A DNA stretch of 51,746 nucleotides from Geodermatophilus sp. DF01-2 (GTDB taxonomy: Bacteria; Actinomycetota; Actinomycetes; Mycobacteriales; Geodermatophilaceae). The position numbers and the translations under genes were made by a program. Location: positions 1 to 51,746 of the forward strand of contig NZ_SPQN01000017.1 in the NCBI RefSeq assembly GCF_004571065.1, in the 5' to 3' direction. The notes under the pieces are model-generated. The model searched no databases. It saw nothing but the letters and a program-made list of their open reading frames with translations, and was not told the origin of the DNA. Of this stretch, positions 4,561 through 50,862 are shown one piece after another (positions within the stretch are counted from its first letter, which is position 1; every line of letters starts with the position of its first letter).

Positions 4561-4576
4561 CCGTTATCCCCAACTA
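4561..4576 (-). other. Polar terminus-type 16-mer, site a
   Basis: Minus strand reads TAGTTGGGGATAACGG. It is one of six near-identical sites in the window, 22.6 kb left of dif, and reads away from dif. The 44 bases on its dif side (4577-4620) are about 75% A+C on the plus strand by hand count, with a single T. It lies in the short gap upstream of the SpoIIE-type gene. Confidence 0.8.
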
Positions 4577-4620
4577 AACTACACCAAACAAGACGCCGGA
4601 ACGACGACCGCCGACAGCGA

Positions 4621-4824
4621 TCAGACCCCGACCCGGCGGGCGCACTCCGAACAGGGGCTGGACGAGCCCAGGCCGCGCCGACCGGCCCAGCTGCCCTGCA
4701 CGACGGCGACCGGGGTGCCGCAGGCGGCCACCCATGGCGGCGGCCCGTCGGCGGAGTCCCGAGGCACGGCGTGCGCCAGCCCGCTGTCCTGGTCGCGGCC
4801 GGCCGCGTGGTCGCTGCTCGTCAT
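4621..4824 (-). CDS. Small putative zinc-ribbon protein
   Basis: This 67-aa protein starts at an ATG (4824) preceded by GGAG at good spacing. The C-terminal half reads WVAACGTPVAVVQGSW, then CSECARRVGV at the very end. One cysteine followed later by CxxC suggests a small metal-binding fold like those in many short actinobacterial proteins (DUF3039-like layout). No function is known. The in-frame ATG with a ribosome site and the cysteine pattern argue for a real gene; its length alone would not. Confidence 0.55.
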   Translation of the reverse strand: MTSSDHAAGRDQDSGLAHAVPRDSADGPPPWVAACGTPVAVVQGSWAGRRGLGSSSPCSECARRVGV

Positions 4825-4959
4825 GGTCTCCAGGATGCGGGCCACGGATGCGGTCCGGCGCGAGCCCGCGGCGGAGTCGTCCCGGCCCTTGATCCGCCCG
4901 CAGCCCGCGGGCAGGCTGTGACCCACACCACAGTACGGGTCAACCGTCGGGAGGTCGTC

Positions 4960-5157
4960 GTGGAAGCACGCGTCGGGGACCGGATCGTCGTCCGGTCCAC
5001 CCACCAGGGAGAGCCGGAACGCACCGGCCGGGTGCTCGAGGTCAGGGGAGAGGGCGGGGCTCCGCCCTACGTCGTCCGGTGGGACCCGGACGGGCACACC
5101 GGCGTCTTCTACCCGGCGGGCACCTGCGCCGTCGTCCCCGAGCCGGCGAACGGCTGA
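4960..5157 (+). CDS. DUF1918 small protein
   Basis: The 65-aa product matches the DUF1918 plan along its whole length: VGDRIVVRSTHQGEPERTGRVLEVRG, then PPYVVRWDPDGHTGVFYPAG. It probably forms a small SH3-like beta barrel. Function is unknown. The GTG at 4960 has GGGAGG seven bases upstream. It ends five bases before the EF-G2 start, so the two are likely co-transcribed. Confidence 0.85.
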   Translation: MEARVGDRIVVRSTHQGEPERTGRVLEVRGEGGAPPYVVRWDPDGHTGVFYPAGTCAVVPEPANG

Positions 5158-5162
5158 CCCGC

Positions 5163-47270: not shown

Positions 47271-47276
47271 CGGCGC

Positions 47277-47852
47277 TCACACCTCTTCCCAGGTGTAGGA
47301 GGCGGTCACCTCGTCGGTGATGACGATGCGGAGGGTGACCTCCTCGCCGTCGGCGGTGGTGCCGGTGCACTCGTAGTCCGCCCCCTGCTCGACGGTCATC
47401 TCGTCGTCGCAGGACAGGTCGACCGCCACGCCCTCGACCTGCTCGAACTGCTCGGCCACGTCGTCCTCGACGGCACCGGTGTCCAGCACGGTGTCGCCGA
47501 GGAGTCGGGCGAGCACGACCGCGACGACCAGGAGCACGGCCGGGACGACGATGCCCGCGGCCAGTCCCGTCCGCGACCGCCGCGGCGGGGCCGGCGGCCC
47601 GTACGGCGGCTGGCCGCCCCATGGCTGCCCGTACAGCTGCTGCCCGTGGGCCGGTTGCCCGCCCCACGGCTGCCCGTAGGTCGGCTGCCCGTAGGTCGGC
47701 TGACCGGCGCCCGGCCGGCCGCTCCACGGCTGGCTGTACTGCGGGGGCGGCGGGCCGTACGGAGGCTGACCGCCGTACGGCCCCGACTGCTGCGGCCACG
47801 GCTGCTGTGGCCGGTACGGGCCGGGCTGGTCGCCCTGCGGTGGGTTGGTCAT
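47277..47852 (-). CDS. DUF4333 protein with a Q/P/G/Y-rich N-terminus
   Basis: The 191-aa product has about 90 residues of low-complexity repeats (units such as PTYGQP and WGGQPxYG), one membrane anchor ([23 protein letters not shown]) and an extracytoplasmic DUF4333 domain with two cysteines ([30 protein letters not shown]). Function is unknown; mycobacterial relatives include small exported proteins. It is convergent with the exonuclease gene (6-base gap). Confidence 0.88.
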
Positions 47853-47931
47853 CGTCGCTCCCGCTCGAGGGTCCCTGGGGCCGCGGGATCTGCCGCTCCG
47901 GAGCCGGGTCGATTGTGCCCCGGCCGCCGGC

Positions 47932-50790
47932 TCAGCCGCCGACGGCCACCGCCACCACGCCGCGCCGCACCCGCTCCACCGCCGTCCGGGCCGTCGTCGC
48001 GAGCGGGCCCTCGGCCACCTTGGCCACCTGGTCGAGCAGGTCGACCAGCTGCCGGGCCCAGCGCACGAAGTCCCCGCCGGAGAGCTCGGTGCCGGCCTGC
48101 TCGGCGCCGGCCAGGACCCGGTCCAGGCTCTGCCCGTCGGCCCAGCGGTAGGCCGCCCAGGCGAAGCCGAGGTCCAGGTCGCGGGAGGCCGGCACGCCGT
48201 GGTCGAGCTCGACGTCCTGCAGCCGCGACCGGATCCGCCGCATCTCCGCGATCGCGGCGGCGACCTTGCCGGCCGGCACGGCGGGCTGGCCCGGCATCTC
48301 CCGCCGGGCCTCGAACACCAGCGGAGAGACGGCGGCGGCGAGCTCGGCCGGGGTCAGCCCGCGCCACACCGCCGAGCGCAGGCACTCGGCGACGAGCAGG
48401 TCGGCCTCCGACCAGATGCGCGCCAGCCGCCGGCCGTCACCGGTGATCACCGGGGCCACGTCGGCGACCTCGCGGTCCACCGGATCCTCGCCCTCGGCGA
48501 CGGCCGGAGCCGCGGGATCGGGCACCAAGTAGCCGAGCTCCTCGAGCACGTCGCAGGTGCGGTCGAACTGGCGGGTGAGCGACCCGGTGCGCTCGGCCAT
48601 CCGCCGGTGGGTGGCCTCCGCCTCCCGGGTCGCGCGCAACCAGCGCTCGGCGGCGCGCACCCGCTCCTCCCGGTCGGGCAGGGAGTGCACCGGGTGGGCC
48701 CGCAGCGCCCGGCGCAGGTCGTGCAGCACCGGGTCGTCTGCGGCCGCGGAGCGCTGCTTGACCCGACGGGCCCCGAGCTCATGCTCGACGCGGGCGTTGC
48801 GCAGCGTGGCGGCCAGGTCGCGGCGGGCGTGCGGGCTGCGGTGGTTGAAGTTCCTCGGCACGCGGACCCGGGCGAGCGCGGTGACCGGCGTCGGGAAGTC
48901 GATCGTGCCGAGGCGGCCGGCCCACTTGTCCTCGGTGACCACCAGCGGGCGCGGTTCGGCAGTCCCGCCGATACCGCTGTCGGTCACCCCGGCGTCGAGG
49001 ACGACGGCCAGCCCCTGCCGCCGCCCCGACGGCACCCGGATCACGTCGCCGGGGCGCAGCGCGGCCAGCGCGTCGGCCGCCTCCATCCGGCGCTTGGCCT
49101 GCGAGTCGCGGGAGAGTTCCTTCTCCCGGTCGGCGATCTCCTGGCGCAGCCGCGCGTACCCGGCGACGTCGCCTCCCTCCGAGTGCATCTCGGCGGCCCA
49201 GCGTTCCGCGTCCTTCTCGTGCCGGGCCGCCGCGCGGGCCAGCCCGACGACCGAGCGGTCGGCCTGGAACTGGGCGAACGAGGAGGCCAGCAGCTCGCGG
49301 GCGCGCGCCCGGCCGAACGAGCTGACCAAGTTGACCGCCATGTTGTAGCTGGGCCGGAAGCTGGAGCGCAGCGGATAGGTGCGGGTGCTGGCCAGCCCGG
49401 CGACGACGGAGGGATCCATGCCCGGCGCCCAGACCACGACGGCGTGCCCCTCGACGTCGATGCCACGCCGTCCGGCCCGGCCGGTGAGCTGGGTGTACTC
49501 CCCCGGCGTCACGTCGACGTGCGCCTCGCCGTTCCACTTCACCAGCCGCTCGAGGACGACGGTGCGCGCCGGCATGTTGATGCCCAGGGCGAGGGTCTCG
49601 GTGGCGAACACGGCCTTGACCAGGCCGCGGACGAAGCACTCCTCGACGGTCTCCTTGAACGCCGGGACCAGGCCGGCGTGGTGCGCGGCCAGCCCGGCCA
49701 GCAGCCCCTCGCGCCACTCCCAGAAGCCGAGGACGTGCAGGTCCTCCTCCGGCAGGGAGCCGGTGCGCTCGTCGACGATCGCGGCGATCTCCGAGCGCTC
49801 GTGCTCGTCGGTCAGCCGTAGCCCGGACCGCAGGCACTGGTCGACCGCGGCGTCGCAGCCGTTGCGGCTGAACACGAAGGTGATCGCCGGCAGCAGGCCG
49901 GAGCGGTCGAGCCGCTCAATGACGTCGGGGCGCGCCGGCGGCCTGTAGCGCGGCTTGTGCGAGAAGCCGCGCCGAGGCCCGCCGTCCCACCCCTCGATCC
50001 GCCGCTCGTACTCGCGCACGTAGCGGACCAGCTCCGGGTCGACGACGCTGGCGCCCCGCTCGCGGGTGGACTGCCCCCGCGGCGTCCCGCCCTGCTCGGC
50101 GGCGTGCGCGGCCGGGCGGAGGCTGAACAGGTCGAACACCCGGTTGCCGACCAGCATGTGCTGCCACAGCGGGATCGGCCGGACCTCGCTGACCACGACT
50201 TTCGTGTGACCGCGGACGGTGACCAGCCAGTCGGCGAACTCCTCGGCGTTGCTCACCGTCGCGGACAGCGACACCAGGGTCACCGACTGCGGGAGGTGGA
50301 TGATCACCTCCTCCCACACCGCGCCGCGGAAGCGGTCGGCGAGGTAGTGCACCTCGTCCATCACCACGTAGCCGAGCCCGGCGATCGCCGGCGACTCCGC
50401 GTAGAGCATGTTGCGCAGCACCTCGGTGGTCATCACGACCACGGGCGCGTCGCCGTTGATGGCGTTGTCCCCGGTGAGCAGGCCGACCTTCGCCTCGCCG
50501 TAGCGGTCGACCAAATCGTTGTACTTCTGGTTGGACAGCGCCTTGATCGGTGTCGTGTAGAACGCCTTGCGTCCCTCGGCCAGCGCCTTGTGGACGGCGA
50601 ACTCGCCGACGACGGTCTTGCCGGCGCCGGTCGGGGCGCAGACCAGGACGCCGGCGCCCTCGTCCAGGGCCTCGCAGGCCTCCACCTGGAACGGGTCGAG
50701 GGAGAAGCCGAGCTCCGCCGTGAAGTCGGCCAGTGCGGGGTGGGCGCTGCGCCGCCGGGCAGCCGCGTACCGCTCAGCGGGGCTGGACAT
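47932..50790 (-). CDS. helY: SKI2/Mtr4-like DEAD-box helicase HelY
   Basis: The 952-aa protein has superfamily 2 helicase motifs: [11 protein letters not shown], Walker A APTGAGKT (residues 52-59), [17 protein letters not shown] (145-148), SLSATVSN, and GRAGRRGID as motif VI. The Ski2-type C-terminal domain follows (DSKH2-like) with [20 protein letters not shown] ending. Bacterial HelY (Rv2092c) is probably an RNA helicase in RNA processing or decay; direct data are scarce. Length is slightly above family average. ATG 50790 is the family start. Polar site f lies 57 bases before it. Confidence 0.93.
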
Positions 50791-50846
50791 GCCTTCACGT
50801 TAGGCGTGTTACTCGTTCTCGGCGCGAGCGTCTTTCTTCGTGGCCA

Positions 50847-50862
50847 TAGTTAGGGATAACGG
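50847..50862 (+). other. Polar terminus-type 16-mer, site f
   Basis: Plus strand reads TAGTTAGGGATAACGG, identical to site b in opposite orientation. It lies 23.7 kb right of dif and reads away from dif. Its GT-rich flank is weaker (about 63%) than that of the inner sites. Confidence 0.85.

What the first reader, a model, noticed from the sequence alone, without database searches (positions are those of the whole stretch)
4561..50862. Six copies of a 16-bp polar motif whose orientation flips exactly at dif
Seen directly: TAGTTRGGGATAACGG occurs at 4561(-), 17421(-), 25997(-), 42478(+), 43429(+) and 50847(+), with at most two changes from consensus. No other GGATAAC or GTTATCC core was found in the window. 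All are between genes, and chance copies of a half-AT 16-mer are not expected in DNA of this GC content. The three left of dif are on the minus strand and the three right of it on the plus strand, so each reads away from dif. Polar sites mirrored about dif are known as Ter sites (Tus, RTP fork traps) or as FtsK-guiding KOPS. These are longer and rarer than KOPS octamers and unlike any Ter I know; I know of no such system described in actinobacteria. The fork-trap reading is inference.
Basis: partly seen in the sequence, partly recalled or inferred. Interest (0 to 1): 0.95.

Follow-up and report, generated by a model that had tools for sequence, protein, structure and literature searches.

The report
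Third kind of replication fork trap
Short one-way DNA signs around the place where chromosome copying ends, together with a gene for an unknown protein that travels with them, look like a previously undescribed brake that keeps the copying machinery inside the finish zone in a family of soil bacteria.

Summary
In detail: six near-identical polar 16-mers flip strand at a perfect dif core. It generalises: 26 of 26 genus genomes carry the motif; in the 21 whose sites I placed, 148 of 148 sites on the dif contig read away from dif, and dif lies between the innermost opposed sites in 21 of 21. A second genus gives 47 of 47. dif lies opposite dnaA in the closed genomes computed.

The likely binding protein is the 286-aa orphan at 42506-43366(+), flanked by two sites. 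A site sits directly before its start codon in 26 of 26 genus genomes and 65 of 65 named loci. Of 112 family genomes, 92 have gene and exact motif, 18 neither, two incomplete ones only one. No Tus, RTP or other Pfam match; the predicted fold resembles tyrosine recombinases. Of 91 intergenic sites, 29 lie between convergent genes, against a promoter regulon.

Best reading: a third, independently evolved replication fork trap. Binding and fork arrest are inferred. Against the simple rule: one genus carries a divergent site pair 160-166 bp apart about 20 kb from dif.

The parts
4561..4576 (-). polar site, left of dif (outer)
   Evidence: 0 mismatches; intergenic
17421..17436 (-). polar site, left of dif (middle), between convergent genes
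25997..26012 (-). innermost polar site left of dif (1151 bp from it)
27148..27167 (-). dif core, centre of the strand switch
   Evidence: 0 mismatches to the actinobacterial core pattern
42478..42493 (+). innermost polar site right of dif, overlapping the promoter of the 286-aa gene
42494..42499 (+). likely -10 element TAGAGT between site and start codon (leaderless promoter, inferred)
   Evidence: a TANNNT lies between site and start in 64 of 65 named loci
42506..43366 (+). gene of the candidate terminator protein, 286 aa, orphan family restricted to Geodermatophilaceae in the genomes searched
43429..43444 (+). polar site right of dif, just downstream of the gene, between convergent genes
50847..50862 (+). 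polar site right of dif (outer)
   Evidence: 0 mismatches; intergenic

Best explanation
A chromosomal replication fork trap. The 286-aa protein binds the asymmetric site [AT]GTT[GA]GGGATAACGGT. A bound site lets through a fork coming from the oriC side (it meets the CGG end first) and stops a fork that has already passed the centre (it meets the GTT end first), so the two forks fuse in the interval that holds dif, here 16.5 kb wide between the innermost opposed sites. The protein probably represses its own gene because one site overlaps the promoter. Shown: positions, polarity, confinement to the terminus, site-gene linkage, shared presence and absence. Inferred: binding, direction of arrest, autorepression.
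For: 148 of 148 placed genus sites and 47 of 47 in a second genus have the strand expected from their side of dif; dif between innermost sites in 21 of 21; 143 of 148 within 60 kb of dif; dif 0.465-0.500 of the genome length from dnaA in 8 closed or main-contig genomes, 7 of which have the system. A site directly before the gene in 26 of 26 genus genomes and 65 of 65 named loci. Gene and motif share presence or absence in 110 of 112 family genomes. Outside the family the motif is at control level: 9 hits in 8 of 322 order genomes against 7 for the reversed control. 49 of 91 intergenic sites have no gene start within 150 bp. The same architecture is reported for Tus and RTP: site in the promoter of the terminator gene, dif between the innermost sites (PMC10331603, passages).
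Against: No binding or fork-arrest data. In genus g3, 6 of 17 placed sites are on the unexpected strand relative to dif, because 16 of 16 g3 genomes carry a divergent pair 160-166 bp apart. Local skew did not show where forks meet. Two incomplete assemblies break the co-occurrence (G061, G097). No sequence relation to a known terminator.
Confidence: 0.8

Rival explanations
1. The protein-site complexes are polar guides or stops for a segregation motor (FtsK or a condensin) near dif, not for replication forks.
For: Centred on dif in genera g1 and g2; polar; confined to the terminus.
Against: 2-12 exact sites per genus genome, far rarer than KOPS octamers (recalled); a dedicated orphan protein is present and absent with the sites, while FtsK is general (recalled); in g3 the pair sits about 20 kb from dif.
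Confidence: 0.12
2. A transcription regulator and its operators, whose orientation follows gene orientation near the terminus.
For: One site overlaps the gene's own promoter; 42 of 91 intergenic sites have a gene start within 150 bp in one direction or the other.
Against: 29 of 91 lie between convergent genes and 49 of 91 have no gene start within 150 bp either way (simple gene caller); a regulon does not predict the strand rule.
Confidence: 0.04
3. Recombination sites of a tyrosine-recombinase-like enzyme, for example for inversions about dif.
For: Foldseek matches of the predicted fold; sites in inverted orientation across dif.
Against: The conserved part is only about 16 bp with no paired arms; Trp-Pro where the catalytic Arg-I is expected and no hairpin Lys (equivalence by predicted secondary structure); same-strand copies flank genes that recombination would delete.
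Confidence: 0.03
4. Ends or debris of a mobile element.
For: A Mutator-family transposase gene lies beside one site.
Against: Sequence beyond about 16 bp is not conserved; copies are strand-sorted about dif; no relative of the protein in the plasmid, phage or viral-contig collections.
Confidence: 0.01

Closest known systems
Tus-Ter replication fork trap (Escherichia coli and relatives)
   Same: Asymmetric sites in opposite orientation on the two sides of dif, few per genome; terminator gene next to a site that lies in its promoter (PMC10331603 passages, PMC8707476 passages and section 2.4).
   Different: Unrelated protein (no PF05472 match; no Tus among the listed PDB matches); shorter site of another sequence; Actinomycetota.
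RTP-Ter replication fork trap (Bacillus subtilis)
   Same: Polar sites at the terminus, a site in the promoter of the terminator gene (PMC10331603, passages). The divergent pair at the gene in g3 recalls the TerI/TerII pair by rtp (recalled).
   Different: RTP sites hold two half-sites for dimers (PMC10331603, passages); no PF02334 match; another predicted fold class (RTP winged helix: recalled).
KOPS / FtsK-guiding octamers and AIMS
   Same: Polar and mirrored about dif.
   Different: Longer, far rarer, and tied to an orphan gene; KOPS and AIMS are 8 bp (PMC2680272 and PMC5993296, search listings only).
matS / MatP terminus organiser
   Same: Confined to the terminus region.
   Different: matS is palindromic and non-polar (recalled); the present site is asymmetric and strand-sorted.
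Tyrosine recombinases (XerA, Cre, XerD)
   Same: Predicted fold: the 39 best Foldseek PDB matches belong to this superfamily.
   Different: No sequence-profile support; catalytic positions appear lost.

Membership tests
Replication fork trap (functional class) | Asymmetric sites in opposite orientation on the two sides of the terminus, opposite oriC | tested here: met
   exception in g3
Replication fork trap (functional class) | Dedicated terminator protein gene linked to a site in its promoter | tested here: met
   linkage; co-occurrence; autorepression not tested
Replication fork trap (functional class) | Orientation-dependent arrest of replication forks by the bound protein | not testable with these tools
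   needs 2D gels or marker-frequency sequencing
Tus family (PF05472) | Sequence match to the Tus profile | tested here: not met
   40 members scanned against Pfam at E up to 10, no Tus match listed
RTP family (PF02334) | Sequence match to the RTP profile | tested here: not met
   40 members scanned against Pfam at E up to 10, no RTP match listed
Tyrosine recombinase superfamily | Sequence match to PF00589 or to recombinases of the same genomes | tested here: not met
   (hhalign probability 0.7%)
Tyrosine recombinase superfamily | Fold | tested here: inconclusive
   best E 2.2e-4, prob 1.00, but TM about 0.3 on a model with pLDDT 73, pTM 0.45
Tyrosine recombinase superfamily | Catalytic Arg / Lys / His-x-x-Arg / Tyr set | tested here: inconclusive
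   Trp125-Pro126 in 64 of 64 where Arg-I is expected, no hairpin Lys; His214 in 64 of 64 with Arg217 in 51 of 64, Tyr246 in 64 of 64; equivalences rest on predicted secondary structure
KOPS | 8-bp motif, frequent along the arms, read by FtsK | tested here: not met
   about 16 bp, 143 of 148 placed copies within 60 kb of dif; FtsK binding not tested

The most novel reading that the evidence does not exclude
A third, independently evolved chromosomal fork trap, the first in Actinomycetota, whose terminator protein is a retired tyrosine recombinase that lost catalysis and kept sequence-specific DNA gripping as a one-way roadblock; in one Blastococcus lineage the trap has shrunk to two divergent sites about 165 bp apart, 20 kb from dif.
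Probability: 0.55. Interest if true: 0.95.

Novelty: new variant of a known kind. Interest (0 to 1): 0.9.

Why it matters
PMC6549158 (passages) says that two unrelated fork traps had been described, limited to four clades; PMC10331603 (passages) treats their purpose as still debated. A third origin with a different protein, plus genera of the same family that lack both parts, would give an independent natural experiment on what fork traps are for and on how a protein can stop a replisome from one side only. It would also give a function to an orphan protein family.

Tried and rejected
Regulon, mobile-element ends, recombination sites and KOPS were considered and set aside (see rivals). Local GC, T-A and keto skew around dif in 14 genomes was too noisy to place the fork meeting point. 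Profile-profile comparison with 16 recombinases of the same family gave no support for homology, so the recombinase link rests on the predicted fold. The first structure model (26 sequences, pLDDT 55) was too poor; the second (64 sequences, pLDDT 73) was used. Relatives of the protein were sought in plasmids, phages and viral contigs without a true match (the only plasmid hit was E 2 over 35% of the query). The 15-mer occurs once in each of 27 viral contigs, not studied further.

GTTC variants: ten GTTCGGGATAACGG matches on dif contigs, some 420-620 kb from dif, also have the expected strand (10 of 10). The own genome's one on C156 lies inside a coding frame, so I think that the far ones may be one conserved coding stretch and did not count them.

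Limits of the counts. One search used only sites printed (both lists were cut): 21 of 26 genus genomes, with 5 genus sites on contigs without dif left out; in g2 21 of 23 genomes (two had no dif hit), and in g3 10 of 16, sites on contigs without dif left out. The inner gaps ignore variant promoter sites that the exact pattern misses. dnaA was located in 12 genomes; the dnaA-dif distance was computed for 8 of them. L097, L115 and L124 were left out of the protein alignments for doubtful start or length, and other near-identical rows to save space (A2: 40 rows, A3: 64 rows). In one search the start codon was chosen as one lying 6-30 bp after a site, so spacing and start choice are not independent; for I chose starts by eye from the candidates. 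Named loci and genus genomes overlap.

Literature: searches (open-licence PMC full text only, listings cut to the best hits) showed no report of a fork trap in Actinobacteria or Geodermatophilaceae; subscription papers and preprints are not covered.
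Full report
Observation. The six 16-mers exist as described (6 found, 0.06 expected, 0 of 100 shuffles with six). All five GGATAAC heptamers of the window lie inside them; the sixth copy has GTGATAAC. A dif core with no mismatch is at 27148-27167(-). In the 4.45 Mb draft genome 6 of 7 matches with up to two mismatches are on this contig; the seventh lies in a coding frame.

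Generality. Exact KTTRGKGATAACGG is present in 26 of 26 genus genomes, 0 hits to the reversed control. I placed the listed sites of 21 of those genomes against dif (positions): 148 of 148 sites on the dif contig are minus left of dif and plus right of it; 5 more sites are on contigs without dif; 143 of 148 are within 60 kb. dif lies between the innermost opposed sites in 21 of 21, median gap 17.8 kb, range 3.4-32.6 kb. Genus g2 gives 47 of 47 in 21 of its 23 genomes. In three genomes of g9, 19 of 19 agree. By coordinates shared, g1 is Geodermatophilus, g2 and g3 are Blastococcus clades and g9 is Modestobacter; all belong to Geodermatophilaceae, Actinomycetota. In the eight closed or main-contig genomes computed dif is 0.465-0.500 of the genome length from dnaA; one of the eight (G078) lacks the system. 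A k-mer count that does not use the motif puts its 13-mers first among 13-mers mirrored about dif in G008, G010 and G093 (a few unrelated 13-mers with fewer copies also pass) and finds none in G078.

The site. Over 78 non-promoter copies with at most one mismatch the core is GTT[GA]GGGATAACGG, preceded by A or T in 70 of 78 and followed by T in 51 of 78; little is conserved beyond (the mismatch limit inflates the core). Of 92 copies in 14 terminus regions 91 are intergenic by my simple gene caller: 34 between co-directional, 29 between convergent, 28 between divergent genes; 49 of 91 have no gene start within 150 bp in either direction.

The protein. The gene at 42506-43366(+) encodes 286 aa. 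It starts 12 bp after the site at 42478 and is followed by the site at 43429. It is single copy in 26 of 26 genus genomes. A same-strand site lies 12-15 bp before the start in 26 of 26. In 65 of 65 named loci (Geodermatophilus, Blastococcus, Modestobacter, Trujillonella, Goekera and unclassified relatives) a site lies 6-15 bp before the start, 12 bp in 51, with 0 mismatches to the 14-mer in 54 and one in 11; a TANNNT lies between site and start in 64. A leaderless promoter overlapped by the site is therefore likely (inference). Mean column identity is 78-82%. The gene and the dif core pattern are on opposite strands in 78 of 78 genomes that have both on one contig, which suggests an old, vertically inherited locus.

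Co-occurrence. Among 112 family genomes the protein is found in 93 and the exact 14-mer in 93: 92 have both, G061 (80% complete) has the protein with one-mismatch or variant sites, G097 (72% complete) has only the motif, and 18 genomes of four genera have neither. Among the 96 good-quality genomes each is found in 84. In 397 genomes of the order (drawn evenly from a larger group) all 67 strong protein matches are in the family; three others have E 0.001-0.005 over short stretches. In 394 genomes of the class 3 match, two of them family members and one of the weak ones. Outside the family the motif occurs in 8 of 322 order genomes, 9 hits, against 7 control hits.

Exception. In genus g3, 16 of 16 genomes carry at the gene two divergent sites 160-166 bp apart (variants with G or C at one position and up to one mismatch), about 20 kb from dif where both are on one contig. 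Relative to dif 6 of 17 placed sites in 10 genomes are then on the unexpected strand, although the order minus-left, plus-right is kept within the pair. A decayed partner about 150-165 bp from the promoter site also appears in some other genomes, so the pair may be ancestral. A fork trap about 165 bp wide could work; a dif-centred function fits less well. This is the main result against a simple rule 'mirrored about dif'.

What the protein is. No sequence match of weight in Pfam, NCBIfam, PHROGs or the PDB. The second AlphaFold model (pLDDT 73, pTM 0.45) has a helical N-terminal domain and a C-terminal part with a beta hairpin followed by helices. The 39 best Foldseek PDB matches are tyrosine recombinases (XerA, Cre/Tre, XerD, Tn1549 and lambda integrases, XerH), best E 2.2e-4, prob 1.00, TM about 0.3. 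Profile comparison with 16 recombinases of the family gave no support (probability 0.7%). Catalytic positions look lost, by predicted secondary structure only. 'Retired tyrosine recombinase' is a lead, not a result.

Mechanism. By comparison with Tus and RTP, polar sites around dif, bound by a dedicated protein, form a trap that forks may enter but not leave. A fork moving towards dif meets the CGG end first (predicted permissive); one that has passed dif meets the GTT end first (predicted blocking). 'Reading away from dif' depends on which strand is written; PMC6549158 (passages) describes known ter sites as pointing to dif. That paper names two unrelated fork traps, in four clades. PMC10331603 (passages) reports that both known terminator genes are autoregulated through a ter site in the promoter and that dif lies between the innermost ter sites in the species checked. 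PMC8707476 (passages and section 2.4) describes two-site traps with a site next to tus. These features recur here with an unrelated protein and site. Binding, autorepression and fork arrest are not shown. Local skew was uninformative.

Novelty. It works like Tus-Ter and RTP-Ter in its anatomy and is a member of neither family (sequence features tested and not met). My paper searches showed no report of it.

Noticed in passing
window 17548-18384(-): A 278-aa Mutator-family transposase (partial match to the Pfam profile) lies next to the site at 17421.
   Followed up: no
window 27577-29964(-): An ABC ATPase with a UvrA-like look (ABC_tran plus a zinc-finger-like stretch) is the first gene right of dif.
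   Followed up: no
genomes G066-G083 (genera g5-g8); region read for G078: L176-L179: 18 genomes of the same family lack both gene and motif; in G078 no mirrored 13-mer was found within 40 kb of dif. Natural comparison group for the function of the trap.
   Followed up: partly
G010:C38:20001-100000 (L188-L191): The k-mer GGCCAGCCGGTC also occurs 7 times mirrored about dif; possibly a KOPS-like sequence of these bacteria.
   Followed up: no
promoter sites in L009, L011-L017: In one Geodermatophilus subclade the promoter copy of the site carries changes not usual elsewhere (GGGCATAAC, GGGTATAAC or GTTCGG), perhaps tuning self-repression.
   Followed up: no
G000:C156:17686-17701 (L007) and far GTTC matches in G006, G007, G008, G009, G011, G013: GTTCGGGATAACGG matches 420-620 kb from dif keep the expected strand; the own genome's copy is inside a coding frame that reads like a DNA ligase, so they may be one conserved coding stretch.
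   Followed up: partly
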